A stretch of 62,633 bases of DNA from Alkalinema sp. RU_4_3 (GCA_012031975.1 JAAUSA010000004.1:1-62633); one strand, 5' to 3'. Shown: positions 2,815 through 49,918, counted from the stretch's first letter. A program made the numbers and translations. The notes: generated by a model not told the origin, from the sequence alone.

Positions 2815-2829
2815 CTTGTAGAGGTCTCC

Positions 2830-23098: not shown

Positions 23099-26000
23099 TT
23101 ACTTGTTTTCCAAGTATTTCAAGGTACCGTCTTGCTGACCGACGATCGCATCCAAATCGCCATCGCCATCAATATCAGCAAAGGTGACGTTGCTGTTTGC
23201 ATCTAAGCCACTGATATTGTTCATGGGATTCGTGTTGCCGGTCTGGCGACTAAAGCTACCGCCATTATTGCGATAGTAAGCCATGCCGCCTTTACCATCA
23301 CCGATAAAGATATCCAAATCGCCATCCTTGTCGATGTCGGCAAAGCTGGGTCGTAGACTGCTACTGACTGTCATCCCATTAAATGGGTTAGCAGTCCCAG
23401 TCACTTGGGCAAAGCTAGCATTGGTATTGCGATAGAAGGCAATGGAGCCACTGGTATTACCCGCAGCGCTGACGGTGGTAATGAAGGCATCCAAATCGCC
23501 ATCGTTATCAATATCGGCAAAGGTCGGAGCCATGGTCGCCAGGGTCACCGCATTAAAGGGATTAGCCGCATCGGTGACTTGGGCAAAACTGCCGTTGGTA
23601 TTGCGGTAGTAACCGATCGTGCCCTTCGATCCGCCAATAAAGGCATCGAGGTCACCGTCGCGATCGATATCCGCAAAGGAGATGCTGCTGTTATCACCCC
23701 AATCCACGCCGTTAAAGGGATTGGCTGCGCCCGTGACTTGGGCATAGGTGCCGTTAGTGTTGCGATAGTAGCGGATAGTGCCATCGGCGGCACCCACAAA
23801 AGCATCCAGATCACCATCCTTATCGATGTCGGCAAAGGCGGGGGTCGCCTGATTGCCCACATCTAAGCCATTGAACGGATTGGCTGTGCCTGTGCGCTCG
23901 CGGAAGGTGAGTCCAGTAATGGACAGCGAAACCGTTGCTGTACTGGTACCCCCTTTGCCATCACTGATGGTGTAGGTGAAGCTGTCGTTGCCTGTATTGC
24001 CCAGGTTGAGTGCGGCGAACTTGCCGTTAGGGTTGTAGGTGAAGGTGCCGTTGGCATTGAGCGTTAGTTTTGCCCCGGAGGTGAGGGTCACCGTTGCGCC
24101 CGCAGCGATCGCCACACCATTCACCTGGGTGACATTCAGGACATCGCCCGTGTCAATATCCGTATCGTTGCTCAAGACCGTTAGGGTTGTGGCCGTATCT
24201 TCATTGGTGGTGAAGCTATCGGCGATCGCGCTGGGACCATCGTTCACACCTGTAATCGTCAGCGTGGCTGTGGCTGTGGCTGTGCCGCCTTTGCCGTCGC
24301 TGATGGTGTAGGTGAAACTGTCGTTGGCGGTCTTGCCCACCCCCAGGTACTCAAATTTACCGTTGGGATTGTAGGTGAAGGTGCCGTTGGCATTGAGGGT
24401 GACCTTGGCCCCGGAGGTGAGGGTGATGGCTGTGCCAGTGGCGATCGTCGTACCATTGACGCGAGTCACTGTCAGGGTATCAGCCACGTTTGCATCAAAG
24501 TCGTTGCTGAGGGCAGAGATATTCACCGAAGACCCTTCGTTCGTGGTGGCGATGTCATTTAGGGCCGTTGGGGTTGTGTTGGTGTTCTCGAAGTAGTTGA
24601 GGTTGCCATTAAATTCACCGATGAAGGCATCTAAGTCGCCATCGTTATTGATGTCAATGAACACGATCGTGCTGTCGTTGCCCACATCTACGCCATTGAA
24701 CGGATTGGCTGTGCCCGTTTGTTGGCTAAAGCTGCCATTGGTATTACGGAAGTAGTTGATGTTGCCATCTTTTTCACCCACAAACGCATCCGCATCACCA
24801 TCGCGATCCACATCGACAAAGGTAATCCGGCTGTCATCGCCCACATCGACCCCGTTGAATGGGTTGGTCGTGCCTGTGATATTCGCAAAGCTACCATTGG
24901 TATTGCGATAGAATTTGATGCTGCCATCGGCTTGCCCAACAAAGGCATCCAGGTCACCATCACTGTCGATGTCCACAAAGCTCGGCGCAACCTTTTCAGC
25001 AACGCTATTAAAGGGGTTGGTTGTGGCCGTTACTGCCGTGAAGCTACCATTGGTATTTTGGTAGTAAGACATTCCCCATTTGCTATTACCCACAAAGGCA
25101 TCGAGATCCCCATCTTTGTCGATGTCGGCCAAGGAAATGGAGTCGCCACTGATGCTCTCAAAGGGATTTGCACTGCCCGTGATTTGGCTAAAGCTACCAT
25201 TGTCATTGCGATAGTAACTAATGTCGCCATTACTGTTACTCACTAAGGCATCGAGATCGCCATCTTTGTCGATGTCAGCAAACGTTGGGGCACTGGAGTA
25301 GCCCACATCGATGCCATTGAAGGGATTCTCACTGCCTGTCCGTTCATAGAACGCTCCACCTTTAATGGTCATGGTCACGGTGGCGGTACTCGTACCCCCT
25401 TTGCCGTCACTGATCGTGTAGGTGAAGCTTTCGGTGCTGGTTTCACCCATGCCTAGGGTGACAAATTTGCCATTGGGGTTATAGGTGAAGGTGCCATTGG
25501 CATTGTAGATCAGCTTTGCGCCGGAGGTTAGGGTGATGGTGCTGCCAGCGGTAATGTTATTACCATTGACTTGGGTGATGCTAATGACATCGCCTGTATC
25601 AATATCAGAATCGTTGCTCAGAACGGAAATCGTCGTGGCTAGATCCTCATTGGTGCTGGCATTATCCGCTCTGGCGATCGGTGCGTCGTTGGTGCCTGTA
25701 ATGGTCAACGATACGGTGGCGGTGCTGGTGCCGCCTTTGCCGTCACTGAGGGTGTAGGTGAAGCGATCGGTGGCGCTCTGGCCTACGCCTAGGAATTCAA
25801 ATTTGCCATTGGGATTGTAGGTGAAGGTGCCGTTCGGGTTGAGGGTGACGGTGGCTTTGGAACCAATTTGCAGGGTGGAGCCGGTGCTTAAGCTGGTGCC
25901 ATTGACTTGGGTGATGCTGAGAACATCGCCCTGGTCGATGTCGGTGTCATTGCCCAGGGGCGCGATCGTCACTGCGACATTTTCGCTAGTGGTGGCGGCA

Positions 26001-29000
26001 TCGGCGAAGGCGATCGGGCCGTCATTTAAGCCCTCGATCGTCAGGGTGACGGTGGCGGTGCTGCTGCCCCCTTGACCATCGCTGAGGGTGTAGGTGAAGC
26101 TGTCGGTGGCCGATTGACCCCGTGATAGGGATTCAAACTTGCCGTTGGGGTTGTACTTAACGGTGCCATTGGGGTTGAGCGTGACCTGTGCGCCGGAAGC
26201 CAGCGTCAGTGCCCTACCCGTGATGGCAGCCATGCCATTGATTTGGGTGATGCTGAGATTGTCACCGAGGTCAATGTCGGTATCATTTGTTCTAGGGGCG
26301 ATCGTCACGACGGTTGCTTCATTGGTGGTCACCTGATCCGCCATGCTGATGGGCGCATCGTTGATCCCTTGAATTGTCATCGTCACCGTGGCGAAATCGG
26401 TGCCTCCGGCTCCATTGGTCAAGCCGTAGGTAAAGCTATCCGTGGTGGTCTTGCCTGAACCGAGCCACTCAAACTTGCCGTTGGGATTGTAGGTCAAGGT
26501 CTTGTCCGCATTCCAGGTGACGATCGCGCCGGAGCTAAGCGCCACCGATTGGCCTGCGGTAATGGTTTGACCGCTGACGGTGGTGAGGGTGAAGGCGGTG
26601 TTGCCGTTGAAGTTGATGTCGTTGCCTAAGACGTTCAAGGTGGCGCTGGTGGCTTCCGTCGTTAGGCCGCTGTCGTTGAGCGCGATCGGGGTGATCTTGA
26701 CCGTTTCGGTATTGCTATAGCTGATGGTGCCTAGGCCACTATCCATCACTTTTTGAGCCGTTTTGTCCCAGGTGCCGATTTGCTTGGCGGGTTGGACGAA
26801 CAGGGTATCGTTGCCGCCGCCACCATCGACGGTGATATCGAAGCTAGAACGCAGGGCATCGTTGCTGGTCGAGAGGGTAATGGTGTTGTCACTGTTGTTC
26901 CCCTTGATGGCCACAACGCCGCTGGTTCGCCCCGCCACATCGGCATTCAGATGGGCCAGGGTGTACAGATAGACATCTTGGGTGGTGTTGAGTTGGACGA
27001 TCGCTGCGTTTGTTAATTCCAAATCCAGGGCATTGGTGCGAGTCCCGACCGCCGTTGCGCTTAAGCTGAGGCGATCGGTTTTGATATTTGCCGTTGGATT
27101 GTTATTGTCATCGGTATTGGCATCGATGATCGCACCGATCGAAGTTAAGCTAACACTTTGTGCTGCATATACTTGATCAACATTGAGGTTACCTTTGGCA
27201 TTGTCCACATAGATGTTTTCTTTGGCACGGGCGGTTAAGCTGCCTCCGGTGCTGTTGGCGATATTGTTAGTTAGGTCGATCGTGATGGCAGCATTGCTAC
27301 TACCGATGCTGGCGTTGCCCGCTTCCATAACTAAATCGGCACCCGTGACATTGACCGCGCCCACGGTTGCCACATCGTAAATCCCCTGCGCTCCTTTAAT
27401 CCGGACTTCGCTGCCCGCTTTGACTTGATCGAGGTTGATGTCCTGCTCGGAGCCGAGGAAGACGTTGCCGCCGGCGGTGAGGTTAATTTCACCTTGAGCA
27501 TCGATATCTACATCCTGTTTGAGACTGATGCGAATCGAGGCAATCGGGTTCGCTGATTTGCGCGGATTGGTGATGACGGCTCCGTTGGCATCGTAATAGG
27601 TGAGGTCATCGCGTTCAGCCGCACTGAGGGCAAGGCGTTGCTCCTCGGTTAAATCCGTGGCCCAATTTTTCACGTTGGCCCAGTTGTTGATCACCATTGA
27701 GCCTTCAGTCCGCCCAATGCCACCGCTAGCGGTGACAGTTACGTTGCCACCCGCTTTGATGTTGGCGGCTTCGATCGTGAATTGCGTATCGGTGACGGTG
27801 CCGAAGAGTCCAGTGCCAATCTTATTGCGCAGTTGATCCAGGCTCCACTGACTGCCTTGCCGCAGGGCATTTTGCTGCGCGGTGCTGACGGTGTAGTTGC
27901 GCTCGATCAATGTGGGATTGTAGGTGGCAACATTGGTCAGGTTTTTCCCGGTGAAATCGCTGTCTTGGAATAGATCACCGATCGCTTTGGCGACATAGGC
28001 CCGATCGCCCGTCAGCGAGACGGAACCGCCACTGAATAGCGTGTTTAACGTGTGATATTCGCTGGTCTTCGCGGTAGCCATCGCAGCGATTTGACTATTA
28101 CTGTAGCCGAGGCTTTGTAATTGGGCCTTGGCGGTGTCGCTATAGCTGTAGACGAAGTTGGCGTTGTAGGCATCGGCGGTGTATTGGCCATTCGCAGCGG
28201 CTTTGACGTTGCGATAGTTCCAGTAGGTCTGATACAGGTGTGCCACCTGTTGCTTAAAGCTGTTGATCGATTGGGCACTGCGATCGGTGGTCAAGCCCAC
28301 CTGCGACCACAGACTTTCCAACTGGGCTTGGGAATAGGGATCGACCGTTTCCGATCGATTGTTGTCAATCAAACTGCCACTGGCTACGCTCAGATTCACG
28401 TCACCGCCCGCCGTAGCACTGACGAGATAGAGATCACCACTGGTTTCTGTCAGGTTGATGTGATCGGCGGCTTTCAGCTTCAATCCAGAGATGCCATCAG
28501 CACTACTCAGGATCGTCTGGCTGCCATTGCTGAATTTGATACCGGAATTAACGCGGAGTGACTGAGTCGAAGACCCGATCGAGCCATTGTTCGAGACCAA
28601 ATTGATGGTATATCCCTGAATATCACCGCTGCCACCGCTGCTCAAGAGCGATCCTTCCGTCGATAGGGTGAGATTGCCCATGGCAACACTGGCCGCCGAA
28701 ATGGTCACATCACCCGCAATATCGGTAATCACCGCATCACTGCCAGAGAAGAATTGCAATTGGTTCACATCGGTTTTGAGATTGGCCAAGCTATTCCCGG
28801 ATAGCATCAAACTATTGCTAGTCAGCCAGCCATTGCTCGACAAGTTGCTGATCGAACCCGATGTGGATTGGAGGCTGGTGGCTCCGCCTTGATTGCGGAT
28901 CGAATCAAGCAAGAGGATATTCTTGTTGGAGGTGATGTTAACGGAGCCGCTATCGTAACCGATAAAGTTAACGTTAATCGGTGCGTCCGCATTATAGCTA

Positions 29001-32000
29001 TGGGTGTTGATGATTTTCTCACCTTTCTGATAGGTATCGCGGCGATAGTACGTGGTTTCTTTGAAGATCCACCAGCCACTTGAGGTTTCTTTCCAAGTGT
29101 CTTGATCGACGAGTTTACTCGCCTCGGTCGTTACCTTTTCGCGACTATATCGGTAGCCATTCAGGTTTAATACAGCATTGTCAATGAAAGCACCTTCTAA
29201 CAAGGGGGTTTCATCCAGCAATCGGGTGGTGGATTCAATCTCCGTGCCCGGATCTCTTGCCAATTCATCCACGCCCCAAACCTTGGATTTTTTATAGGTT
29301 TTCTCAGTTTCGGTTTGGGTGGCTTGGCCCGTGACCCAGGTAAACCGCTGGTTGGCGAGTGGATTGTAGCTGGCGCTGCGAGAATTGCTGACGGTTGAGG
29401 TTTTGCCCCCGGCGATCGAGGTGTCGGTGATGGTGATATTGTCGCCGATGCGGGTATAGGTCGTGGCCAGGGCATTGCCGTCGGCTCCCTGGCGGGCGAT
29501 GTCAACGATTTTGAGTTTGCCTTCGATGCCATCGCCGCCTGTATCGAGCTGGTTAATCGCGATCGCGTAGTTTGTGTTGTTTGTCACATTGATCCGCCCA
29601 AAGCCATCCATCACTTGCAGATTGCCATTCCCGGTGCTGATGATATGGCCCACCAGTTGCATGTAGCCCCCGGCGATCGCGACGTTATCCAGTTCAATCC
29701 GGTTTTCGGCGGCGTTGTATTTGGTGGTGATGTTAGACCCCGGCACGGTTAGGTTGAGGTAAGGCATGGCAGGCGTGTTGCCAGCGGCCTTGAGGCTGTC
29801 GTAGCTGGCCTTAAAGCTACTAATCTGTGTGTTCAAATCGCTGTTGAGCGTAACGGCGCGATCGGGGGCACCGCTTTGGATCGTGCCATTGATGTTGAGG
29901 TAGCGGGCATTGATGAACACATTGTTGGCAGCGGTGATATTGCCTGTGCTTGTGGATGCGACTGTGTCACTGCCGCTACTGCTGCTCCCATTTTCAAACC
30001 TTCTAGCCGTGCTGGAGATTTGACTGCGCGGATCACCGCCCACATGCATAAAGCCCAGGTCATCGGTGAGGCTGAAGCGGTGGGCGGTGCCACTGCCGCT
30101 GCTGGTGAGGTCGATCGCGGTACCGGATTTGGCAGTACTTTCCGTTGTTGCGAGTTTGATGGTGTTGCTATTGACGACGATCGCGAAGTAACTGCGATTA
30201 TCAGTCAAGCCACCAATGCTCGTGCCATCACCATTGTCATAGAACAATTTATCCCCAGTTTGCAAGCCATGATTGGCGAGGGTAATGGTGTTTGCAGAAG
30301 TATTGACCTGGCTGGCGGGATTTAAGTTCAGCACGGTGCCTTGGTGATTCAAGACAAAGTCGCCACCGGACTGGATATCAATGGTTTTAGCATTGATATT
30401 ACCGGAGACCAGCACGTTGCCCTCGTCATTGGCCAGTCGCACGGTGCCCTTGAAATTGGTGACCGCACCCTCGACGCTCAGATCCGGCGCAGGCGGAGTC
30501 TCGACCCCCAAGGCGGCAAAGTCATTCTTCTGCACCGCAAAGGTGGGATTGTAGGTGTTTTCCACTTGAATCAGCGACTGTTCGCTGTTACTCAATGTGG
30601 TGACTTGGCTGAAGTTGGCGGTTTGGCCCCGATCGTTGCGATTGTTGATGGTGTCATTGCTGTTGACTTCAATCTGGTTAAACAGAATTCGGCCCCCGGC
30701 GACTTCCGGAATGGTCAGGTTCTTAATCCGGAGGTAATAGGGACTGCTGTTTGTGATGCTGATTTTGGCATCACCGGGGGAATTCAAGACCCCGCTGCCC
30801 TTGAGGAAATCGCCGTTCACCCGAATATCACCCACTTTGACCGCAATATCCGGCACGTCAATATAAGTCACCTGGCTGACATCGCCCAGTTCGGTCAGTT
30901 TCATTTGCCAATATTCAATTTCCGCACTGTAGGAAGCAACGGTGCTGGCATCCCCGGCATAGGTAGCTTTCAGTTCCTGAAGTTGGACAATGTGGGCGGT
31001 GATATTGTTGTACAGATTCTCGACGCTAAGGGCGACGGTCCCAACGCCATCGGATTTTTGGGTGATGTTGATCGGATAGACATTAACACCATTAACCGTT
31101 GTGGTTGCGTTCAAGTTGAGGCGTTCATCGATCGTCAGCGTTTCTTGGTTTTCAATACTCACCTCGATCGAGCCATTCACGGTCACACCAGTGGTGTTGG
31201 TAATATCATCGCGATCCACATGAACCTCCTCAACGGAAGCTCCGACCATACTTTCATAGCTATCTTGACTCTTGTGTATCCCCATCGACTCAACGTTTCC
31301 TTCAGTCGTCAGCAGATTGGTATCCAAGACAGTCTGAATCTGTGCGCCTGCGGCGATCGTCACGGTATTTTCTAAGTTCACCGTCGCATCCGCAATCCCT
31401 GCACTACTCAGCGGCAGTGCCGTGTAGTTCCAAACATTCGATCGGGCATCCACCGTAATATTGTTGGTATTCCCTTGCAGATCTTGTCCGGCCAGCAGGT
31501 TGACATCACCTTCGGAACGCAGATAGGCTCCATTGTTCAGTTGGATTTGGTTTTTGGTGTTGGTTGTGGCGACGGAGTTGGCCGCAGGCAAACCCGCAAT
31601 CCCGTAGCTGGAGGCATTAGCCGTGGCATCGAGATTTACATCGGCAAGGGCGGCGAGGGTAATATCGCGATCGCTGTACAGGTTGGCATCCTGGATTTTA
31701 ATCACGGCATCATTGCGTTCTTGCTTCAGCTTCGATTCCGCCACGGCAACGGAAATCACCCCGCCGCTATCGAGTGTGGTTTCATCCCAAGCGGAGACGC
31801 TGTTGAGCGCGTTGACGTTGAGATCGGCTTGGGTTGTGATGGTGGTATCAAAGTCGTTGGTGGTTGAGCTATCGCCGATCGTGATGGTGGTGCTGTCTTT
31901 GATCGTCGTATTGCTAACCACGGCAGAGGCATCCAGGGCACCGCCTGATCCAGCTTCGGCATTCTCATCGTTGAGCTTGGCTTTGAGAATCGTTTGCTTA

Positions 32001-35000
32001 GCATTGACCGTGAGACTGTTGGCCTTGATTGTCAATTTTTGCTGAGTATTGTCGGTATCGAGTCCAATATCAACGCTGACATTGGTATTGACGGTGTTGG
32101 TCGTACTCGCGCCACTGCCACCCACGATCGCCGCATTCACACTATTGGCTTTGCTGTTAAAGTTCGTGGTTTGGTCGGCAGTGATGTTAATGGCATTGGC
32201 GACATTAATTTCCACATTGTCGAGCGTCCTATCCCCATCTTCGATCCGAACTTTCACCGTACTCTGGCTATCCGTCGAACTGGTCGCCGCTCGGCCTGAC
32301 ACCACACCGCCACCACCGGAGATGGCATCCGCAAAGTTCGTATCATTGCCGATCGCGTCAATCTTCAGGTTCTTGGCGGTAATATTCACGCCCGTTTCTA
32401 AATAAGCCTGGGTGGTCAGGTCAGATTCGGCCTTGGCAATATTGGCTCCGACAGCCAGTAGACCCGCGTTATAGCCATCGGCTTTGGCGGTTTGGTCGCT
32501 CTGGGCATTGGCTTTGATCGATACATCATTGGCGATCGTTAGTTTGCTATTGGTTCCCATAAAGGCCGTGACTTCGCCTTCATTCGTCGCCGTACTCTGA
32601 CTGGCATTGATCGAACCCAAGAGCGCCCCACCGGAACCGGAAGCCTCGGCATGGGCCGCATCGCCACTGGTCGGCAGAATTTGTTGGGCGAGGACGGTCA
32701 AATTATTGGCGTTAATCTGGTTGCTGCTACCAATGTAGGCATCCACCTGGGGCTTCACGATCGCGGTGGCCTCGGAGTAGCCGACCTGAATCCCCCCCGC
32801 TACTGCTACCCCTTGGGCCTCGGCTTTGGCCTTGGGCTGCGCGGTTGCGGTAATCGTCAGATCCCCGCTCAGGGTCGTCGTGACGTTACTACCGACAAAG
32901 GCTTGCACCGTACTGTCCACGGTGGCATTGATGTCCGTCCCTGTTCCCGCCGCCGCTAAACCGCCCGCGATCGCCAGTCCCTGGGCATCGATCGTGCCAT
33001 CGCCCTTGGCTTTGATATTTAAATGCGTCCCTGTGATCGTGGCATCCGTCACCTGCGCTTTCGTCCGGCTTTGGGTTTTGGCATCGGCAACCGTGGCTCC
33101 GATCGCGACGAAGCCACCACTGACTCCGTAGGCATCCGCTGTGACGTTGTCGGTGCTATCGGCGGTGACGTTAATCGTTTTACCCTTAATCGTACTGCCA
33201 GCTCCAATCTTGGCTTCTCCCGTCGATTTGACCGTCCCGATCGCTTCGCCCCCAGCGCCAGCGCCACCAATACTGGCCGCGACCGAAGTGGCGACGGCCA
33301 ATGCGTCAATATCCGACGTGGCAGTGGCGGTGAGGTTGATATTGTCGGTAATCGAAGCAACTTTTGCCTGCTCGATTGTGGCTCGTACCGTATTGTTAAT
33401 CGTCGTCTCTGTCGTCGAAACGCCCACGGATGCGCCGACATAGCTGGCGACGACCGCACCACTTCCGACCGTTGCATCGATCGTTGGGGTGTCCGTCGCT
33501 GTTAGGTTAATTTCGCCGCTTGCTTGAACGTTGTAGACTCCACTGGCAGCGCTATTAACGTTGCGGATCAAGGCTTCAACTTGATTGCTGGTGGTGGTGA
33601 TGACCTTCGCTCCGGCACCGCTAAAGCTGGCGCTGGTAGGCGCCAGCCCCGCCGCTAACGAGGCGGCCACGGCAGTATTTTCCGTCATCTTCAGTTGCGA
33701 TTGGGCTTTGAGATTAATGTCATCGCCCACGTTCACAGTCGTGCTATCGCTCGTTGTGCCACCAATCACCGATTGGATCGTATTGTCAATCGTATTGGTC
33801 ACTTCGACGGCTCCGATCGCCATGCTGAAGGAGGCACTGCTACTGCCAGAAACGGCAATGCTGCCACCCACCGCCACACTCTCGATCTGGCTTTGGTCAA
33901 GCGCCGTTTGGGTCAGGTCGCCGCCGTTATTGGCATCCGCTATGGTGGTAATCGTGCTGCCGTTTTGAATCATGGCTTGGATGGTGTTGCGGAGCGTATT
34001 GGTTACGCCCGTCCCAGCTCCCGCTGCACTTACGCCCGCACTGCTGCCCACGGCAACCGATACCGCTCCTGCCATGCCAAAGGTTTCGATTTCAGCAGTG
34101 GAAGTGGCGGTTAGATTCAAATCCCCTGCTTTGACGGTGGCTTTGTCGATCGTCGCTTGCACCGTATTGCCGATTGTGTTATCGGCGATCGCCACCCCGA
34201 CGGATGCACCCACTCCGGCATTAGAACCCACTCCCACCGCCAAACTGGCTGCGCCCGCATTGGCAGTAATTTCGCTATCGTCAGTGGCGGTGAGGTTGAC
34301 CGTTTCATCGCTGGTGACTGTGGTGTTATTTTGTGTGGTGTTATTTTGTGTGGCGTTATTTTGGATTGCCGCCGCGATCGTGCTGTTAATCGTGTTCTTA
34401 ATGCTCGTCCCAGCCCCGGCCAAAGCGATGCCAGCGCCGCTGCTGGTCGCACCCACAGCGGCAGCCCCGCTGAAGGATAGGCCATCGATCGTCGCTGTCG
34501 ATTTAGCGTTCAAATTGACATTGCCATCGGCAGTAATCGTGGCATTATCCACTAACGCCTTGATTGAGTGACCTTCTTCTTGGCCGATTTTGTTAGTGGC
34601 AACGGATGCCCCGATCGATAAAGCCGCGCCAGAACCACTGCCCAAGGTCGCCGCGATCGCGACTCCCCACCGCAGTCCGCCACGATTTTGCTGCTGTCCA
34701 TCGCCATCACGTTTACGGCAGCATTATTACTCGTGGTGATCGTGGCGGTATTTTTCACTTGCGCGACGATCGTGTTATCAATGCTGTTATTCGTTCCGGC
34801 TCCTGCCCCGCTGAGGCTGAGTCCGCCCATGGAGCCGGAGGAACCCGATGCCGATCCGCCGATACTCAGTGCATCAATTTCCGCCGTGGATTGCACCGTA
34901 ATAGTGACTGCCCCGGTGGATATGAGCTTCGATTGATCAACTTCGGCGATGATGCTGTTATGAATATCATTATTAGCCAGGGAAATGCCAGTGGCCGCAG

Positions 35001-38000
35001 TCCCGCTATAGGAACTACGGGCCAACGCCAGGGCATAGCCGCCGCTATCGGCGGTGATGTCGCTATCATCCGTGGCCGTCACACCAATCTTACCGCCGTT
35101 GTTCGTTGTAATCTTGCTGTTGGTATTTACGGTCGCCGCGATCGTATTGCTAATATCATTGAACGCGCCCGCTCCGGCTCCTGCGAGGCTCACCCCAAGC
35201 ATTGAGGTATTGGAACTCACCGAACCCGCTGCCCCGATCGCAAAGGCTTCGATCGTGCCAATCGATTCTGCCGTAATCTCCACATTGCCATTGGCGGTTA
35301 AGGTGGATTGCTCGACGACCGATCGTACCGTGTTATTGATATCGTTATAGGCTAAACCTGCCCCAGCCGTGATCGAAGCCCCGTTATTATTGGAATTAAT
35401 GCTGCCTGCGATCGCGACTCCTCCGGCATTGGCCTGTAGGGTGGAATCATCCGTCGCCTTGATCGTGATTGCGCCGCCGATCGACACCGTGGACAGTGCG
35501 ATCGCCGCTTCGGTCTGGTTGCTAATGTCATTAATGGTGACAGCCCCCGCAATCCCCACATTGACAGACGAATTCACGGCCCCCGTCCCACTGGCGGTAA
35601 CCGCATAGATTTCACTGCTGTTCAGTGCATTGACCGTCAGCGTCTGCGCCCCCGTCAATTGGCTGTTATAGATATAAGCATTGGTGGTTTGGCGTACTGT
35701 GTTTTGGTTGTAGGCTCCCGCAAGGCCTAGCGAGGCTTTGGAGGTGCCCTCTTTATTCCCGATCGTGGCCGCTACCGAACCGCCGATCGCCAAAATATCA
35801 CTGTCATTATTGGCGGTGATGCTCATGGTCGCTGGATTCGCGACCTGCACCACGACCCCGCGCAGATAGGCTTCGGTATTGTCTGTCACGCTATTGAACG
35901 CCACATCCCCCGAAACCCCGATGCCAAACTTGCTGGCTGGTTTCGTTGTGCCATCGGCATTGGTGGTCTCTTCATTGCCTGTAGCGATCGCGGAGGCCAA
36001 GGAAAACGCAGCAATACTGCCCTGATTGCGGGCATTGACAATGACGTTACCCTCACTGGTGATTGATGTGGGCAAATCCGTTTCGCCGGAATCACTCAAG
36101 TTGCCAATCACAGCACGAGTATTGCGATTGATCTGGTTAAACCCGATCGTTATGCCGATCCCAATATTTTCAGCCACAGCCACACCGCCCATGATATTCA
36201 TCACGTCGGTGTTGTCCTTGGCATTCACGACTAAACTAGCATTGGTATCACTGATGAGATTATTACCAATCACCATATTCACGCCATCATTAATTTGTGC
36301 CGTGGTGGTGTTATCGACATAAACCCAACTCCCCGCCCCACTGAAGCCAAAGGTCTCGGCTTTGCCACCAGAGGCCGCCACGTCAACGTTCATGGTTTTG
36401 CTATCGGCATTCACCTTGAGGCTATCGGCATACAGCTTTACCCCATCCTCAATCCGCGCGTTGACATCACTGCTGTAATCTAATACCAACACTGTGCCGC
36501 CCACGGCATTGCTAGCCTCGCTCCCCGCTCCAGGTAACTGCGCCTGCGGTCTGTTGGCTCGACTATTCCAGACAATTCCTGGCAGTCGAATATTGCCGCC
36601 AAAATGCACCGATTCATTGATGCTCTCGGCGTTCACAATGACATTTTGCTGATCCGATCGGAGTTGGGTATTTTGGTTAATTTGGGCATTGCGATCGATG
36701 TAGGCATTGCTGGTGTGATTTAAGCCGAGAATCGTCACTGCTCCGGCCATACCGACTTTGCTGGTGCTCTTGGCCGTTGCCTGACTCCAGCTATCAAAAA
36801 CGTAGTTATCCAACCCTAAATTGCTGTCCAGATAGCCCGCTAAAGTTCCAATAAATTGACCCGCCTTGCCATACCAAGTCCCCGGCCCTTTAAAGGGTTC
36901 GGCCAAATTCACGCCCCATTGAAGGCTATAGGCGTTGAGGGCTTGGCTGGTGACGGAGAGATCTTTGTAGGCATTCACCGTTGCCCCATTACCAATGTAA
37001 GCATTGACCGTATTGGTGTAATCCCCGATCGCGAGGGCTGCCGAGCCAGCAAATTTGCCACCCGTCGAACTACTCGAACCACCCGTCGAGCCACCCGTTG
37101 AACCACCTGTCGAGCCAGCAGTAGTTGCATCCTTTGTCGTATCGAGATCAGAACTGGCTGACACATCAGGACGATTCGCCGCCACTGCTTGAACCGTAAT
37201 CGCTCCTTGGCTGGAAGTCACACTGGCCGCTATATCGTCAGCGGTGTTGCCATTTTCTGCCTTGCCGCCAATGCGCGCCGTCACGGTATTGGTGTCGCTC
37301 ATATAGGCTGATGCGGCCCCAATTTGGATGGCGGGGGCTTGTTTTTGGGTTCTCTCGCTGCCCTTGGCGGATTTTGAGGATATGAAGGATGATAATTTGT
37401 CCCAAACTGCCTTGCTTGCTGAGCCGTATATGCCACCCAGCAGACTGCCACTAGGACTACCGACCCCAGCATTGGCGCTGACCCCGCTGCCGCCCAGCAA
37501 TGAATTGCCTCCCGAAAAAACGCTGGCAATCGGGGCATTGGTCTGGGCCGCATTCACCGTAATATCACCCGTTGCGATGACAGTACCATCGATCGCGGCA
37601 TGGGTCTTCCCCTCCTCAAATGAAACCGCGACGGCCATGGCCGCATAGCCATCCTTACCCGTTTTCGACTTAGCATCGGTTTGATTGCGATCGATGGTGT
37701 TCGCCGTCACCGCGACGCTGCCGCCTGCCTTAATGATGGCCTTATCCGTCACCTCAGCGATCGAGTCACTATACAATTCACTCATCGCCACAGCTCCCGC
37801 CAGGCTAGCGGCTCCGCTGTTATCCCATCGGGCCGTATTCACTTGAACATCGACGGTGTTATCGGTCAGGGTGGTGAGGCTGACATCCCCACTGGTTTCG
37901 ATCAAGCCAGCGATGGACACTTTAGCAGTTGCATCCGCTTTGCCATAGGCTGCCCCTAACACGTAGGAAAACAGCGGCTGAATCGTGGCGTTGGTCTTTG

Positions 38001-39858
38001 CTGTGGCGGATGCGGCGACGTTGCTGCCAAAGATTTGGGTCTGGTCATCTGCCGTAATCGTGGCGTTGGATTTTGAAAGGGCCGCACCGCCAATCAGGGA
38101 AAAGTTATCTAAAAAGCCGACGATCGCATCCCCAACCGTCGAGGCATCCGTAAACGATCCAACATAGTCGGCCTCAGCGGAGAGCTTCATGTCTTTGCCA
38201 CTGAGGATGGCTTTATAGAGACTGATCGCAGCTTGGCTCGTTTCTGTACCATCGAAGCCCGTTGAGGCGGCCTGACTATCACGGGTGGTGAGGGTAATGT
38301 TGCCAGCGGTGTAGATATTGGAGAGATCAGCGATCTTGGTGTTATTATTGTTGCTAATGCTGCTCTCCACATGGGCCAACAGTTTTGCTGCCGTGGGGCT
38401 GCCACTGGTCCCGATTGTGATGTTGCGGCCAGTCAGTGCGATCGAGCCAGAGTTACCTGTGGAAGCTTCGTTCGCATAATCGGTGCCCGAAATTTTGCGG
38501 GTCGCAACGATACTCCCCGCATTAAAATTAATTGTATTAGCTGTAAAGTTAGCATTGCCGCCCTCGGTATACAGGTTGCCGCCCAGTGTAATGGTGTCAC
38601 TATCGTTGTTACCATTAATGTTCAGAGTACCCCCGCCTGTATTAACGGTTCCATTAAAAATAAGATTATCATCACCACTTGCACCACTGACACTAAAGCT
38701 ACCACCTCTAGTGTCAAAACTGCTGTTAAAGGTAACAGTATCATCACTATCACCTAAATCAATACTAAGATTGACGGCATTCGAGAAGCTATTGAAAGCT
38801 GAGGTAAAGGTCAATTCATCGGAACCATCACCCAGATTAAACTCCAGTCCCGATGTGATATTAGCCAAGGCCACCTTGACCTGATAGTCATTCACTTGGG
38901 CAACACCTGTTTGGGCCGTAATTTTTGATGCTGAATTCGCCGAATAAATATTTTCGGTAATTACCAGATCAGTCCCCGACAGGGAAACGCTCAAGCTATT
39001 TCTTTGCTCGGCGGTTGAGTCATAGCGTAATTTCCCATCATTGAGGGAAACGGTGCCTAAAACCTGTTGATAGTCAATGCTGGCAAGGCTGGCTGTGTCG
39101 ATCGTCCCTGCCCCTACTTCTAGAATCCAGTCCCCTCCCAATGCAGTATTTCCTGTTAAATCATCCGAAGCCGCAACATCTGCCCCCGTTAACTGACTGA
39201 TTTGATTGACCAAAAATTGCCCCTGTAATCCTGCCGCAAAATCACAGCCATAGATCAGAATATCTGCATTTTCGCTCAAGCTATTTTGCCAAGATTGTAA
39301 GCTCTGGCGATAGCGATCGAGGCTGTCCCCATTCAACGTCGCGTTGCCGAGTTGCAGCGTGCCATCACTCCCGTGGGCAACAATATGGACCGCCGTCACC
39401 CCCTGTCGCTGAGCCAACGTCGCACTAATTTGCTCAACCCCATCTTGGTTGGCATCGAGATAAATAATTTGCTGCGGTGGAATGCCAGCCAATAAGCCAC
39501 TGGCGTTTTCGACCGTACTGTCGATAAAAAAGAGTTCTTGGGTGCGATCGCGGCTTCCCAACGTAGTAGTGGGCCAGGGGGCGATCGCCCAGTTACTAAC
39601 CGAATTCTGGGCCAGATCACCAGTGTTTGCTATGTCGATTGTGGAATACCAATCCTGCCCTGAATTCAATGAATTCCCAAATTCATTGGTAAATTGGTCT
39701 GGTTGCGAGGACAAGGCCGAACGTAGTGCAATCGCCCCTAGCGAGGGCTGAGTCAGTCCCATTGGCAGCGGTGAAGCCATGACTTCATTCAGAGACTTTA
39801 CATCTAAAGAAGACTTCGCATCCAAAAAAGACATGCGGTTGAAATCAGCACTCATCAT
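23099..39858 (-). CDS. Giant DUF4347 surface/secreted protein, about 5,586 aa (one 1-nt deletion)
   Basis: One gene of 16.8 kb. Frame is lost in a run of four C (plus strand 34665-34668); adding one base joins the two halves inside a repeat unit. Order: residues about 108-270 DUF4347 (ELFFIDSTVEN, V-H-I-V-A-H-G-S-D-G, I-L-I-Y-G-C-D-F-A-A-G); then some 4,000 residues of beta-helix-like repeats of the form T-A-T-D-D-S-x-I-x-A, A-G-A-G-x-x-N-x-I-x-N-T-I; then four Ig-like units, an FG-GAP array, two Ig-like units and a last FG-GAP array ending in YLENK. FG-GAP units carry D-I-D-x-D-G-D-L-D calcium motifs. There is no signal peptide; type I secretion is likely, as for other DUF4347 proteins. An AGGA ribosome site precedes the tandem ATGs at 39858. 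Likely an adhesin or sheath component. It is divergent from a two-component pair. Confidence 0.85.
23102..23925 (-). repeat. C-terminal FG-GAP/VCBS repeat array of the giant gene
   Basis: About six units of roughly 47-50 codons with the form A-N-P-F-N-G, F-A-D-I-D-x-D-G-D-L-D-A-F-(I/V)-G, Y-Y-R-N-T-N-G-S-F. Each unit has a D-x-D-x-D-G-x-x-D calcium site, as in FG-GAP/VCBS propeller blades, so six units could close a beta-propeller. Units differ at synonymous sites, so the array is not very recent. Confidence 0.8.
23930..24575 (-). repeat. Second set of Ig/cadherin-like repeats of the giant gene (two units)
   Basis: Two units with T-N-E-x, V-L-S-N-D-x-D-I-D-x-G-D, V-T-x-V-N-G, N-G-T-F-T-Y-N-P-N-G-K-F and D-S-F-T-Y-T-I-S-D-G-K-G-G. 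They sit between the two FG-GAP arrays and probably act as rigid spacers. Confidence 0.8.
24580..25352 (-). repeat. Internal FG-GAP/VCBS repeat array of the giant gene
   Basis: Five units related to those at 23102-23925, beginning with F-Y-E-R-T-G-S-E-N-P-F-N-G and ending with L-N-Y-F-E-N-T-N. Each has a D-x-D-x-D-G-x-x-D site. The pairing of two arrays with Ig-like spacers suggests duplication of a whole Ig plus FG-GAP block. Confidence 0.8.
25360..26690 (-). repeat. First set of Ig/cadherin-like repeats of the giant gene (four units)
   Basis: Four tandem units of about 100 codons with the shared frame N-D-A-P-I-x-x-A-D, T-N-E, N-D-T-D-I-D, Q-(V/I)-N-G, Y-N-P-N-G-K-F-E and D-S-F-T-Y-T-L-S-D-G-x-G-G, preceded by one divergent unit (V-L-G-N-D-I-N-F-N-G). 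They link the beta-helix-like middle to the FG-GAP arrays. Confidence 0.8.
37062..37118 (-). repeat. Short STGG/Ser-Gly tandem repeat inside the giant gene
   Basis: A 12-bp unit repeated about four times encodes S-T-G-G-S-T-G-G-S-T-G-G-S-S-S-S-T-G-G. It is a flexible linker and a likely site of slippage-based length change. Confidence 0.75.
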
Positions 39859-40164
39859 TTCGTCCTCAAAAATTAGGAAAACATCGGTAAAATCGTTAAG
39901 CCAGTAAGTTTTGAACGATCATCGCTCGATCTGAAGGTTGCGGTGCGATCGCTCATTCTGCTACGAATAAATCAAGGATGGAATAGATCCAGCGATATCG
40001 TCAAAGTAGAAACACTGAAAGCCTTACAAGATATCAACTTGTATACAAATTGAGTGGCAATCAAGAGAATCTGGTATAGACTTATATAGTCTCCCTGATA
40101 CAATCTGATATTGTGATCGGACGAAGCCTGATATTTTACTCACTGAATGTAATCTAAGCAGCAG
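39859..40164. promoter_or_regulatory. Divergent promoter region: giant gene / response regulator
   Basis: 306 bp between the divergent starts. It contains AT-rich segments with TATAGACT and TATAGTCT (40075-40092) that could be -10 regions facing either way, and one GCGATCGC site (39946-39953). A ribosome-binding AGGA precedes the giant gene. No defined operator is evident. The layout allows the response regulator to control both sides. Confidence 0.45.
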
Positions 40165-40835
40165 ATGACCTTCCCTAACTCGACTAATACGCCACGACTA
40201 AATATTCTGATCGTTGATGATCATCGACTGCTGTTAATGGTATAATTGAACTGGTTCACGATCGCTTCCCCCAGGCTCAGATTTTCTCTGCCCAGGCGGT
40301 TCAAGATGCAATCACACAGGTTGCAGCGCAGCCCTTTGACTTGGTGATCGCCGACTTATCACTTCCAGAAACCGCCGCAACGATGGCGCATATTGAGCAT
40401 GGATTGGGGTTGCTGAAGCGCCTGATGCAAGAGGATCCAACGCTGAACTTGATGGTGCAGAGCAGTAATATAAAAGCCTTAATTCGGCTCATGCCAGAAA
40501 TCGATGCCCACCAGGGCGGATTTACGATCGCGGATAAAAGCCTGGATGTCGAGGCCATTCTGGCCCGGATTGACTGGGCAATGCAAGGATTTACCCATAC
40601 TAAGGATCTACAAACTGATTTGGAGGTCAAGCCAGAGTGGTTGGAAGTATTGCGACTGGCCTTTGAAGTGGGTTTGCAGGACAAGGCGATCGCCCAAACA
40701 ATGTATAAGTCAGAACGGATGATTCGGCACTATTGGTCCAAAATTCAAGATGCTTTAGCGGTTTATCCTGAAGAAGGCAAAAATATGCGGGCAATCACCC
40801 AAATTCGCGCCAGGGAAGCTGGATTGATTGACTGA
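40165..40835 (+). CDS. Response regulator, NarL-like layout (one 1-nt deletion)
   Basis: A protein of about 223 aa when repaired. The receiver domain opens L-N-I-L-I-V-D-D-H-R-L-L, and the phosphoacceptor Asp is in L-V-I-A-D-L-S-L-P. The C-terminal domain has an HTH-like segment (LAFEVGLQDKAIAQTMYKSERMIRHYWSKIQ) resembling LuxR/NarL recognition helices, though divergent. Frame is lost near 40231-40240, soon after the first acidic residues; adding one base restores continuity into N-G-I-I-E-L-V. It starts the RR-kinase operon and is divergent from the giant gene. DNA targets are unknown; the giant gene is the obvious candidate. Confidence 0.8.
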
Positions 40836-40876
40836 AATCGCCCATGAGTTACGATGGTTCCTAACTTGTACAAGCC

Positions 40877-42205
40877 ATGCCGACTATTCTTGATTCCCAA
40901 AACGCCTTGAAGCATCGGGTTATGCTCGCCATTTTGAGCCTGACCACAGTCGGGGCGGCCATTGCAACGATGCTACATCGACTGGATCCCCATCCTCACT
41001 GGGTGAATTTGATTGCGCCGCCGTTGCTAGGAATTATTGCCCTGGCCTTATTGATTCGCCTCTACACCGCACCCAAGAGCTTACAACAGGTGATAAATCT
41101 GGGCTTGCTGGGCGCAGTTCTATTCGTTGTCGTCCCCAGCTGGTATTTCACCCTGGCCGCATTCATCGCACCCGATACCACGCTCGTGGGCAGTTTGCCG
41201 CCCTTAATCTCCATCTTGTTCCTGATCATGATGATCATGATGACTGCCCTGCGCCCGCGCCACTTACTGGGAACAGCACTGATCACCTGGGGGGCGATGG
41301 CTGCGCCTATTTTGACCTATTTGCTCCTCCATCCGGCGGAATTGACGACCTTACGAGGGCTCGATTTAGTCATTGCCCTTGGCCCCGCGATGGCTGCCCA
41401 AATTGTGCTGCTGCTCTTTTTCAATCGGCTTCAAGATCTCGTCGATCGCCTCTATCACGAACGTCTCCAGTATTATGAGCAGATTATCGAGCGTCAGACG
41501 ATTCGCCAACGGGCAATGGAACAGGCCGTCACCCAAGTCCACAATGGCCCCCTGCAAACGCTGGCACTGCTGATGCGAGCCGTACAACGGGAGCAGATCC
41601 CTGCCCCCGAATTATTGCAGCGATTAAATGAGCTCAATGCCGAAATTCGGGCCGTGGGCCAGAGCCTCACCCAAGATGCCGATCTTGATCATCGATCGAC
41701 GGAGCGCTTCGCGGACCGATTAGAACAACCCCTGTTTGAGCAGACACTCAGATTAGGGGAAGGCAGCCGCGTTGACCTTAACAACCCCTTGCACAATTTG
41801 TTTCACGAAGTCTACGCGCTTACCCTAAAGCGACCCCTGCCCCACTTCCAAACCATTCGCGTCAAAGTTCGGAATTTTGCCCCCCTGGAGTCCTCCAATC
41901 TCACCCTAGAACTGAAGCAGGACCTATGTCTATGGCTTGAAGAGGCCCTATGTAATGTGGGTAAACATGCCCAGGGGGTGACGCGGTTGGTTGTCACCGG
42001 CGAACTGGTCGTGACTGAACGACAGGACCACAGGGATTACCTGTTGACAGTACGAGACAATGGATTGGGCCTAACGCCTGAACTGGGGCATCAGGGTACC
42101 CAATTCTGCCATCTCTTGGCCGATCGCTTAGACGGCACCTTTCAACGCAGATCTTTGCCCGATGGCGGCGTGATTTGTCAGATTACCTGGCCGCTTGTGC
42201 CATAA
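40877..42205 (+). CDS. Membrane-bound sensor histidine kinase
   Basis: A 442-aa kinase. Residues 15-185 contain about six hydrophobic spans with short loops, so the signal may be sensed in or near the membrane. The dimerisation/phosphoacceptor segment is Q-A-V-T-Q-V-H-N-G-P-L-Q-T-L (H222), of the HisKA_3-like type that pairs with NarL-type regulators. The ATPase domain has W-L-E-E-A-L-C-N-V-G-K-H-A as N box and V-R-D-N-G-L-G-L as G1 box. It follows the response regulator by 41 nt, so the two form a cognate pair. The signal is unknown. Confidence 0.88.
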   Translation: MPTILDSQNALKHRVMLAILSLTTVGAAIATMLHRLDPHPHWVNLIAPPLLGIIALALLIRLYTAPKSLQQVINLGLLGAVLFVVVPSWYFTLAAFIAPDTTLVGSLPPLISILFLIMMIMMTALRPRHLLGTALITWGAMAAPILTYLLLHPAELTTLRGLDLVIALGPAMAAQIVLLLFFNRLQDLVDRLYHERLQYYEQIIERQTIRQRAMEQAVTQVHNGPLQTLALLMRAVQREQIPAPELLQRLNELNAEIRAVGQSLTQDADLDHRSTERFADRLEQPLFEQTLRLGEGSRVDLNNPLHNLFHEVYALTLKRPLPHFQTIRVKVRNFAPLESSNLTLELKQDLCLWLEEALCNVGKHAQGVTRLVVTGELVVTERQDHRDYLLTVRDNGLGLTPELGHQGTQFCHLLADRLDGTFQRRSLPDGGVICQITWPLVP

Positions 42206-42366: not shown

Positions 42367-42984
42367 ATGGGAAAATTTTTGACTGGTATATTGATCAGCG
42401 TATTGCTCGTTTTGATGATGCTATTTGCTCCCGCAATTGCAGCGCAATCCTTTGGTGATCAGTCATTCACCGAATACGAAGGCTATTTACATCCCGCCCA
42501 AGAAGCAGATCCTGACCTGAAAGTGGAATCAAAAGGCTATGGTCGGCTCAAATTTCCGCGCAATCTGAGTTCTGGTCAGGTGGATGTGCAGGTAATGGGT
42601 GTTGATCCGGCCAACATCACGGCGTTTCATATCCATTGTGGGGCACCGGGCGTACTCGGTCCGATCATCGTGGATTTTTCCCAGTTTGGTGATTTGAAAA
42701 GTACCCTCAAGACAGGAAAATTCTCAGCCACTGTTGTCAATAAAGGGTTAACCTTTGTCAAGCAAGCGCCCCTTCCGCCCAAACCTGGTTCTGGAAAACT
42801 CACCCTGCCACTCCCCGAAGGTTGTCCGAGTGATATTAATTTCCCCGTCCAACAGGTCCAGACGATCGCGGGATTAGAAGCCCTCGCCCGCAAAGGTGCA
42901 TTGTACTTCAACCTGCACACCAAGGGCCATGAATTCTATGGCGAACTGCGCGGACAGATTTATCCGGCTGAAACTGCCCATTGA
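42367..42984 (+). CDS. Secreted CHRD-domain protein
   Basis: A 205-aa protein with a clear signal peptide (hydrophobic LTGILISVLLVLMMLFAPAIA, cleavage near A-I-A-A). The mature part matches the CHRD (chordin) domain: F-H-I-H-C-G-A-P-G-V-L-G-P-I-I-V-D-F in the middle, and Y-F-N-L-H-T-K-G-H-E-F-Y-G-E-L-R-G-Q-I at the end. Bacterial CHRD proteins are extracytoplasmic, but their molecular role is unclear. It lies on the same strand as the RR-kinase pair with 161 bp between, and may share their regulation. Confidence 0.85.
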   Translation: MGKFLTGILISVLLVLMMLFAPAIAAQSFGDQSFTEYEGYLHPAQEADPDLKVESKGYGRLKFPRNLSSGQVDVQVMGVDPANITAFHIHCGAPGVLGPIIVDFSQFGDLKSTLKTGKFSATVVNKGLTFVKQAPLPPKPGSGKLTLPLPEGCPSDINFPVQQVQTIAGLEALARKGALYFNLHTKGHEFYGELRGQIYPAETAH

Positions 42985-43012: not shown

Positions 43013-44442
43013 ATGTATCCCGACCCGGTGATTACTGACTGGAATAATATTCCGATGATGATTAGAAGCCAGTATCTCCAGCCTATGCAGACATTAGAAT
43101 CCCTACTGAAGTTTACGGAACAAAGTGTTTATGACGTCACGGGTGAGTATTTAAATGACTTACAACGTGTGATCCTGCGGGAAGCTTCGCAAGATCCCAA
43201 AAAAACCTATGAGGAAATTGCGATCGAGCATAAATATTCTGGCAATTACATTCAACAAATTGTTGCACCCCGGCTCTGGCGTCTTCTATCAAAGGTTTTG
43301 GGCCAGAAAGTGACAAAATCGAATCTTCGCAGTGTTTTGGAACGTTGCCGTGATGCCCACAATACCGCAATTCAGGAACCCTCGGCTTCCAATCTCGATC
43401 GCACCGCCATTGCCATCATTTCCCCCCTCGACGATCCCACTTGTAGCGTCCCCCTTAAATCCCCTTTCTATGTGCCGCGATCGAGCCAGGAATTGTTGTG
43501 CTACCAAGTGATTCACCAACCGAATGCACTAATTCGGATTCATGGACCAAGACAAATCGGCAAGACATCTTTCCTATGGCGTATTTTAGCCTATGCTCAG
43601 GCAACAAACTTGCAAACAGTTGTCTTAAATTTTCAGCAAGCGGAGAAATCAATTTTAGCGGATCTGAATAAATTACTGCGGTGGTTTTGCACCTGCATTA
43701 CCCAAAAGCTCAAACTGCCACCCCAATTGTCCATCTATTGGGATGATGATATGGGGAGTAAAACGAGTTGTACCCTCTATATGCAAGAATATTTGCTTAA
43801 AGGACTTGCTGCTCCTGTGGTTTTGGCACTGGAGGAAATCAGTGATTTGTTTGAATATCCGCGATCGCTGAGGATTTTTTTAGCCTCTTACGAACTTGGC
43901 AGGAACAGGCCAAAACGGATGAGTGTTGGCAACAGCTCCGATTAATTTTGGTGCAATCGACTGAACCCTATATCCATCTCGATCGATATCAACTCCCTCT
44001 TAATATGGGATTAGAAGTGGTATTGCCCCCTTTTACTACAGACCAAGTTGATTCCCTCATCGATTGTCATGGATTAAAACTTTCTCGCCCACAAATTCAG
44101 CAATTAATGCAGTTAGTTCAAGGGCATCCCTATCTGATTCGATTAATGCTCTACCATTTAGCCATATCGCCCCATCAGTTTGAAACGGTTATGGCCACAG
44201 CAGCCACAGATATAGGAATTTTTCATGACCACTTGCATCGTCACCTGGGGAACTTGCACCATTATCCTGATTTGAGCAATGCCTTACATCAGGTTTTGAA
44301 TGCATCGGAGCCAGTACAACTCGATCAGATGCAGGCATTTAAATTACATAGCCTTGGTTTAGTGAAGCGATTGGATAATCATGTGATGATCGCCTGTGAT
44401 CTATACCAAAATTATTTCATACAAGTTCACGGGGTAGCATAA
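43013..44442 (+). CDS. AAA-like ATPase with N-terminal vMAP-type HTH (one 1-nt deletion)
   Basis: About 476 aa after repair. Residues about 25-100 (VYDVTGEYLNDLQRVILREA, then YSGNYIQQIVAPRLWRLLS) are the winged-helix segment found at the start of many cyanobacterial AAA-like and vMAP proteins. The ATPase follows: Walker A G-P-R-Q-I-G-K-T-S-F-L and Walker B V-V-L-A-L-E-E-I-S-D-L-F. The C-terminal part (V-Q-G-H-P-Y-L-I-R-L-M-L) completes the AAA_35-like domain. Frame is lost near 43859-43862, where one G is missing before a HIP1 site. Relatives act as STAND-like signalling ATPases. No effector domain is seen here, so a partner may be encoded elsewhere. Confidence 0.8.
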
Positions 44443-44520: not shown

Positions 44521-45579
44521 CTAACCGAGCAATTTAGTGCTAGAACGTGACTCTGATAAATACGTCGCATAGGGTCGATAATAGCGATCGGCACAATTTA
44601 ACATCGCTAAATTATCACTTGCCACAGCACTGGCCGCGATCGGAATCCCGCTCTCAATCTGGCGTTTTACCGCTTCTGTCAGTAGTGAGAAGCCCCGACC
44701 CATCCGCTGAAACGGAGTTTCGACAAATAAAGTAGAATAGCGGATTGTATCAGGAGCGACCCGATGGTTGATCGTCCAGCCAATGACTTCCCCTTGGTAG
44801 CGTAGACCCAGACTATTAATTACTTCGAGCCGTGGATCATCGGTGAACGGGCTAAGGCTGTCGGGATAAGCTTGCCGTTGCTGAATGCGCTCGCGCTCCG
44901 CTTTAGTCAGTTCGATCCAGGGAAAGACGGTAAACTTCTGGGGCAAAGGGAATTGATAAACCCACGATGCCTGTTTGAGGGCCTCGATCGTTGTTTTTGT
45001 AATCAGAAAATCAGTTTTTGGGGCTTGCCAATTTTGCTGATGCAGGATCGGTTCAAGACCCTGCTGGGTCAGATCATTAGCGGAATAACTGACCTGAACC
45101 TGAAGACAGTTAAGTTGCCGTAGAGCTGTTTCTAGATACCGTAACAGTTGGGAGCCAATGCCCTGTTGACGCTGCTCCGGTGTGACAAACAGAGACAGAA
45201 TTTCCGCTCGATGCCCTTCGGGCGCTAGAGCATCGGGTAATAGTTCTGCGATTACGAGGCCGACCATTTGACCTCTGGCAATCGCCACGACTCCGCCCAG
45301 ACTTCCCCGCTGTTGATAGGTTTGCCAGCGTTTTTGGAGACTGGGAAAGGTGAGTGGCTCCAATTCTTGGCAGTTGGCCATTGTTAAGTTTTGTACCCAC
45401 TGATATTTTACGGCAATGCCATTAGTCGGCGAAACAGTCGCCCCGATCGATGCATTCTTCTCTGGTATGTCTGCCTGACCTATGGTTGGCTCGACAATAT
45501 TTTGTTGGGCTAACATAATCGTGTCATCCGCTTCTGAGCGATCGCTAAATAGACGAAAGGCTTTTTGGAAGAAGTCCAT
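44521..45579 (-). CDS. GNAT-type acetyltransferase, tandem layout
   Basis: A 352-aa protein with two acetyltransferase-like halves. The first has V-T-P-E-Q-R-Q-Q-G-I-G-S-Q-L-L-R-Y-L-E, the acetyl-CoA pyrophosphate loop (about residues 150-165). The second ends with F-V-E-T-P-F-Q-R-M-G-R-G-F-S-L-L, a weaker version of the same loop, and N-L-A-M-L-N-C-A-D-R-Y-Y. Residues 1-55 are a variable leader. The substrate is unknown. The gene converges with the AAA gene; no strong terminator lies in the 78-bp gap. Confidence 0.78.
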   Translation of the reverse strand: MDFFQKAFRLFSDRSEADDTIMLAQQNIVEPTIGQADIPEKNASIGATVSPTNGIAVKYQWVQNLTMANCQELEPLTFPSLQKRWQTYQQRGSLGGVVAIARGQMVGLVIAELLPDALAPEGHRAEILSLFVTPEQRQQGIGSQLLRYLETALRQLNCLQVQVSYSANDLTQQGLEPILHQQNWQAPKTDFLITKTTIEALKQASWVYQFPLPQKFTVFPWIELTKAERERIQQRQAYPDSLSPFTDDPRLEVINSLGLRYQGEVIGWTINHRVAPDTIRYSTLFVETPFQRMGRGFSLLTEAVKRQIESGIPIAASAVASDNLAMLNCADRYYRPYATYLSESRSSTKLLG

Positions 45580-49675: not shown

Positions 49676-49918
49676 ATGCTAGTCACTTCTCCCCATCAAC
49701 TCGCCATTACAGTTCGAAATCAGCGTAAGCAGATGCAGATCAGTCAGGCAGATGTAGCCGATCGCGTTGGCTTGCGTCAGGAAACTATTTCTGCCTTTGA
49801 AAATAAAGCCGATCGCACCAAGCTGGATACACTCTTTCGCATTCTCGCGGCGTTGAACTTAGAAATTCATGTCGTACCACAGGGCACTAAGGTTTCAGGG
49901 TGGGACAAAGAATGGTGA
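49676..49918 (+). CDS. hipB: HipB-like XRE family antitoxin/repressor
   Basis: An 80-aa HTH protein with V-R-N-Q-R-K-Q-M-Q-I-S-Q-A-D-V-A-D-R-V-G-L-R-Q-E-T-I-S-A-F-E-N, the standard XRE fold; TLFRILAALNLEIHVVPQ then forms the strand used in HipB dimers. It binds operator palindromes and would normally bind HipA. The stop overlaps the ATG of hipA (TGATG). As hipA is truncated, HipB may persist as a lone autorepressor. Confidence 0.88.
   Translation: MLVTSPHQLAITVRNQRKQMQISQADVADRVGLRQETISAFENKADRTKLDTLFRILAALNLEIHVVPQGTKVSGWDKEW

What the first reader, a model, noticed from the sequence alone, without database searches (positions are those of the whole stretch)
23099..39858. A 16.8-kb gene for a 5.6-kDa-residue-scale giant DUF4347 protein divergent from a two-component pair
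The restored protein of about 5,586 residues combines a DUF4347 head, thousands of residues of beta-helix-like repeats, and alternating Ig-like and FG-GAP arrays. A response regulator and a membrane histidine kinase start on the other side of a 306-bp divergent promoter, followed by a secreted CHRD protein. Seen: frames, domains and layout. Known: DUF4347 proteins in cyanobacteria are usually large and secreted. Inferred: the two-component pair senses surface or envelope state and controls this giant protein and perhaps CHRD. The combination is the strongest candidate for an undescribed surface system here.
Basis: partly seen in the sequence, partly recalled or inferred. Interest (0 to 1): 0.72.

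Follow-up and report, generated by a model that had tools for sequence, protein, structure and literature searches.

The report
Giant surface protein beside unrelated regulator
A cyanobacterium carries a gene for a roughly 5,600-residue surface protein with a protease-like head, next to a two-component sensor; comparison with relatives suggests the sensor's lasting partner is a small secreted CHRD protein, not the giant, so the giant is a new member of a known kind and the shared promoter looks like a local accident.

Summary
The gene at 23099-39858(-) is real: two relatives carry it as one open frame of 5,931 and 6,116 aa. The window copy is broken near 34665, and the response regulator near 40235. 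The giant matches DUF4347, LktA_tand_53 repeats, tandem-95/Ig repeats and FG-GAP. The regulator, a six-TM kinase and a secreted CHRD protein lie across a 306-bp gap.

The proposed system is not supported. In both relatives the giant is divergent from another gene, X, and its upstream element occurs there with no regulator beside it. Among 20 other loci of this kinase type, none has DUF4347 nearby, while CHRD is near in 8 (0 of 65 control loci). So RR-HK-CHRD looks like a conserved module that came to lie beside an older giant gene.

The DUF4347 head is predicted to have a caspase-like fold. Its best solved match is the DUF4347 effector Tce1 (Z 13.1), and its His162/Cys205 align with Tce1's proposed catalytic pair. 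Most likely the giant is a type-I-exported surface filament with a cysteine-protease head, and the two-component pair controls CHRD and other secreted genes. Export, cleavage and regulation are inferred.

The parts
23099..39858 (-). giant gene, about 5,586 residues when read across the frame break; DUF4347 head, LktA_tand_53 repeats, tandem-95/Ig and FG-GAP tail
   Evidence: intact orthologues of 5,931 and 6,116 aa
39082..39534 (-). DUF4347 domain with conserved His162 and Cys205 (giant numbering); predicted caspase-like fold
32480..37815 (-). region holding the 17 LktA_tand_53 repeat matches (mostly 57-65 residues apart in the dense part)
23102..26056 (-). C-terminal alternation of tandem-95/Big_9 (Ig-like) and FG-GAP repeats
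34655..34680 (-). frame break in the giant (absent in G029 and G021)
40000..40020 (-). 21-bp element upstream of the giant; one exact match per genome in G000, G029 and G021, each time upstream of this giant
39859..40164 (.). 306-bp intergenic region between giant and response regulator
40165..40838 (+). response regulator (receiver plus unassigned C-terminal DNA-binding-like region), frame-broken near 40235
40877..42205 (+). sensor histidine kinase, six predicted TM segments, HNGPLQ His box
42367..42984 (+). secreted CHRD protein, the conserved partner of the RR-HK pair
43013..44442 (+). AAA_35 ATPase gene, split at 43945; intact 471-aa frame in G029
44521..45579 (-). GNAT acetyltransferase, the conserved neighbour of the giant in G029 and G021

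Best explanation
Two separate things lie side by side. (1) The giant is a filament-like surface or extracellular protein: an N-terminal caspase-fold (clan CD) cysteine-protease-like DUF4347 head, a long beta-rich repeat stalk, and an Ig/FG-GAP tail that probably binds calcium and ligands. It has no Sec signal and is most likely exported by a type I (HlyD-type) system, C-terminus first; the DUF4347 head would then sit nearest the cell, where it could trim or release the fibre or cleave a partner. (2) The RR-HK-CHRD block is a conserved envelope-sensing two-component module: the membrane kinase phosphorylates the regulator, which controls the secreted CHRD gene next door. In this lineage the block came to lie between the giant and its old neighbour GNAT, in place of gene X, giving a divergent arrangement by rearrangement. 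Shown: domains, conserved linkage, the giant's own upstream element, predicted fold and dyad. Inferred: export route, proteolysis, phosphorelay, promoter control.
For: Intact single-frame orthologues of the giant. In both, the order is giant - X - GNAT; X is not found in this genome. The upstream element is shared by the giants only; the RR upstream region does not match that of G029. RR-HK is linked to CHRD in 8 of 20 other loci, against 0 of 45 CHASE2-type RR-HK loci and 0 of 20 random loci; DUF4347 in 0 of 20. CHRD occurs only 1-3 times per genome where present. DUF4347: AF2 pLDDT 86; top PDB match Tce1 Z 13.1, then SAVED-CHAT Z 9.2; His in 40 of 41 and Cys in 41 of 41 sequences, at the positions of Tce1's His186 and Cys240. 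A DUF4347 gene of this genome follows an HlyD-type gene on contig C231. CHRD/RTX proteins of Trichodesmium respond to iron and dust (PMC5776111).
Against: In G029 the giant and the RR-HK block lie only about 30 kb apart, so an older proximity cannot be excluded. Two distant members of the kinase type, G379 and Snowella, are followed by FG-GAP proteins (one of 3,941 aa), which leaves room for a link between this pair and giant surface proteins. No HlyD gene was seen next to this giant, and no C-terminal export signal was tested. Kinase and receiver domains score below Pfam cut-offs in the window copy. The CHRD count is from related lineages, not independent events, and some CHRD queries came from the same loci.
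Confidence: 0.55

Rival explanations
1. One reading: RR-HK senses the envelope and, through the shared divergent promoter, controls both the giant and CHRD.
For: Divergent layout with a 306-bp gap. RR-HK of this type sits next to FG-GAP surface proteins in G379 and Snowella. CHRD linkage is conserved.
Against: DUF4347/giant linked in 0 of 20 other loci; giants in G029 and G021 stand next to X and GNAT and keep their own upstream element. A newly formed adjacency could still have become functional, which these data cannot exclude.
Confidence: 0.2
2. The giant is a decaying pseudogene in this organism; the frame break is real and the locus is non-functional.
For: Frame break in the giant and in the RR, split AAA_35; other broken DUF4347 and kinase genes in this genome.
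Against: Breaks are scattered over unrelated genes including a regulator, as expected from assembly errors in a 362-contig draft; the frames are otherwise open over 16 kb and, in the aligned parts, 56-69% identical to intact orthologues.
Confidence: 0.2
3. DUF4347 is not a protease head but an inactive fold used for anchoring or retention, as an N-terminal plug of a type I exported adhesin.
For: One of 41 sequences lacks the His; the related Tce1 showed no toxicity in its own study (PMC13323088).
Against: Cys conserved in 41 of 41 and His in 40 of 41, both aligned with the proposed Tce1 dyad; such conservation is unusual for a scaffold.
Confidence: 0.3

Closest known systems
DUF4347 / LktA_tand_53 giant proteins of cyanobacteria (PF14252, NF012206)
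   Same: Same head and repeat families well above curated cut-offs; intact relatives of 5,867-6,116 aa in G021, G029 and G040
   Different: Nothing categorical; this copy is frame-broken and has RR-HK-CHRD beside it
Tce1 (PA0256), DUF4347 type VI effector of Pseudomonas aeruginosa, PDB 9qpe
   Same: Predicted fold (Z 13.1) and His/Cys positions of the head domain
   Different: Tce1 is a 310-aa cargo loaded in Hcp3; here the domain heads a giant repeat protein, and no T6SS link was seen
CHAT / Craspase, legumain, caspases (clan CD cysteine proteases)
   Same: Fold-level similarity, Z about 6-9
   Different: About 10% identity; no shared repeats or context; activity untested here
CHASE2-type sensor kinase plus RR pairs of cyanobacteria
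   Same: Kinase C-terminus (about 40% identity) and RR (about 50-60%) are homologous; the CHASE2 label is from general knowledge of such pairs, not a domain search here
   Different: Those kinases are about 630 aa and show no CHRD neighbours (0 of 45)
HTCaB/CHRD proteins of Trichodesmium (PMC5776111)
   Same: CHRD and RTX modules in cyanobacterial proteins thought to be extracellular; in L192, L193 and L195 the CHRD next to RR-HK is fused to RTX repeats
   Different: No regulator was found named in the passages read

Membership tests
DUF4347 (PF14252) | match above gathering score | tested here: met
   181.9 bits against 24.6
LktA_tand_53 filamentous repeat proteins (NF012206) | match above curated cut-off, many tandem copies | tested here: met
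   188.1 bits against 50, 10 stretches in the first ORF; 58.7 bits, 8 stretches in the second
Clan CD (caspase-like) cysteine proteases | caspase-like fold | tested here: met
   AF2 model pLDDT 86; Tce1 Z 13.1, SAVED-CHAT Z 9.2, legumain Z 7.3; a prediction, not a solved structure
Clan CD (caspase-like) cysteine proteases | His-Cys catalytic dyad in place | tested here: met
   His 40/41, Cys 41/41; aligned with Tce1 His186/Cys240
Clan CD (caspase-like) cysteine proteases | proteolytic activity | not testable with these tools
   needs a biochemical assay
Type I secretion substrates | no N-terminal Sec signal | tested here: met
   no hydrophobic segment in the 1,768-aa N-terminal part (simple hydropathy scan)
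Type I secretion substrates | HlyD/ABC/TolC genes nearby | tested here: inconclusive
   HlyD-type gene beside a paralogous DUF4347 gene on C231, none matched beside this giant
Type I secretion substrates | C-terminal export signal | not tested
   last residues are conserved with G029 and G021 but no signal test was run
CHRD (PF07452) | match above gathering score | tested here: met
   47.4 bits against 24.1
Two-component pair | receiver domain | tested here: inconclusive
   window fragment 24.4 bits, under the cut-off 30.2; G029 orthologue 32.1, over it
Two-component pair | histidine kinase His box and ATPase domain | tested here: inconclusive
   HNGPLQ invariant in six orthologues; HATPase_c 18.2 bits, cut-off 26.4

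The most novel reading that the evidence does not exclude
Many giant cyanobacterial surface proteins carry an active caspase-fold protease (DUF4347) as their cell-proximal head that releases or remodels the fibre, and a hitherto unnamed six-TM kinase/regulator module (RR-HK-CHRD) governs secreted surface proteins across several cyanobacterial families.
Probability: 0.25. Interest if true: 0.65.

Novelty: new member of a known kind. Interest (0 to 1): 0.42.

Why it matters
It corrects a tempting guilt-by-neighbourhood reading, points to CHRD as the target to test for a conserved two-component module that I did not find described in the papers searched, and gives DUF4347, common on cyanobacterial giants, a concrete testable role as a cysteine-protease head.

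Tried and rejected
Whether CHASE2-type RR-HK pairs carry giants: 13 of 45 loci with an ORF of 1,000 aa or more against 5 of 20 random loci, no enrichment. Programmed frameshift in the giant: rejected, relatives have one open frame. A shared upstream motif between the RR of the window and that of G029: none above shuffles. Foldseek of the repeat model against PDB and viral structures: no reliable match; VIA-align gave SufB/SufD Z about 10 and secreted beta-helix adhesins Z 6-7, within what repeats can give by chance. Papers: only four in the library mention DUF4347; none usefully joined CHRD to a two-component system in cyanobacteria; none joined CHASE2, hemagglutinin and response regulator.

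Full report
Observation. The two ORFs 34552-39858(-) and 23099-34645(-) overlap in different frames. Two relatives from the same family show that this is one gene: G029 has it as a single open frame of 6,116 aa and G021 as one of 5,931 aa, both starting MSSDFNR, nearly as the window copy does. Aligned to G029, the window differs in length near 34665. The response regulator is broken as well, the AAA_35 gene is split, and other genes of this 362-contig genome show breaks. Assembly error is the simpler reading; real decay is not excluded.

Domains. DUF4347 and FG-GAP_3/Big_9 are confirmed by Pfam. The repeat stalk is a named family, LktA_tand_53, and the tail is tandem-95. A 321-residue piece of the stalk is predicted with high confidence as all-beta (pLDDT 91); its nearest solved matches are beta-helices and secreted adhesin domains, but at scores that repeats can reach by chance.

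How common it is. DUF4347 occurs in 67 of 97 relatives, often several times, with open frames up to 7,612 aa. LktA_tand_53 giants are rarer: of 16 genomes checked, this one, G029 (two), G021 and G040 have them, in two subfamilies.

The head. An alignment of 41 DUF4347 domains has an invariant Cys and a His in 40. The AF2 model (pLDDT 86) matches the DUF4347 type VI effector Tce1 best (Z 13.1), then SAVED-CHAT (Z 9.2), Craspase, legumain and caspases. A profile search aligns the His and Cys with His186 and Cys240 of Tce1, which its authors propose as a cysteine-protease dyad (PMC13323088). The sequence match on its own is weak (E 0.023), so the case rests on fold and dyad together. Activity is unproven for both proteins.

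Neighbourhood of the giant. In G029 and G021 the giant is divergent from X (about 250 aa, no Pfam match) with the GNAT gene beyond it. The window has the same GNAT gene but RR-HK-CHRD-AAA_35 in between, and X was not found in this genome. A 21-bp element upstream of the giant has one exact match in each of the three genomes, each time upstream of this giant. The giant thus appears to have kept its own upstream region, and the adjacency to the RR is seen in this lineage only. In G029 the two blocks are about 30 kb apart.

Neighbourhood of the two-component pair. The RR belongs to a widespread cyanobacterial family: 129 of 390 genomes at E 1e-30. Most copies looked at pair with longer, CHASE2-like kinases of about 630 aa. 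The window's kinase is of a rarer type, about 440 aa with six predicted TM segments. A scan of named genomes gave 17 loci (Microseira, Okeania, Brasilonema, Scytonema, Richelia, Calothrix, Limnothrix, Snowella and others). With G029, G203 and G379 that makes 20 loci besides the window. CHRD lies nearby in 8, in seven of them downstream on the same strand, against 0 of 45 CHASE2-type loci and 0 of 20 random loci (Fisher p 2.6e-6; related lineages, so not independent events). Sulfatase and peptidoglycan-binding genes follow in several filamentous lineages, RTX or FG-GAP proteins in others. DUF4347 and the giant's mid region: 0 of 20. The sulfatase count used queries from the same loci and is descriptive only; some CHRD queries did too.

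Reading. The pair's conserved partner is CHRD, with secreted proteins in general as the theme; the giant is most simply a neighbour by rearrangement. The giant is most likely a type I exported surface filament: no Sec signal, and a paralogous DUF4347 gene follows an HlyD-type gene. Phosphorelay, promoter control, export and proteolysis are inferred, not shown.

Noticed in passing
window 1657-3633: Phage tail sheath protein and Pvc16_N protein on the - strand: probably the edge of an extracellular contractile injection system cluster.
   Followed up: no
window 21157-22797: 546-aa RTX calcium-binding protein on the + strand, converging on the 3' end of the giant.
   Followed up: partly
window 34655-34680, 40235, 43945; contigs C251, C322, C127 of the same genome: Unusually many frame breaks in conserved genes, suggesting assembly errors in this draft.
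   Followed up: partly
window 12994-13863 and 49900-50670: PD-(D/E)XK transposase-family gene and a HipA-like gene.
   Followed up: no
G029:C1:6028375-6046572 (L148/L149) and G040:C20:403-18003 (L146): Second giant subfamily with a DUF4347 head (6,066 and 5,867 aa), each followed directly by an outer-membrane beta-barrel-like protein.
   Followed up: partly
L039:5089-11766: In G029 a TPR protein, a subtilase and a 1,424-aa fascin/crystallin-like protein lie between HK and CHRD.
   Followed up: no
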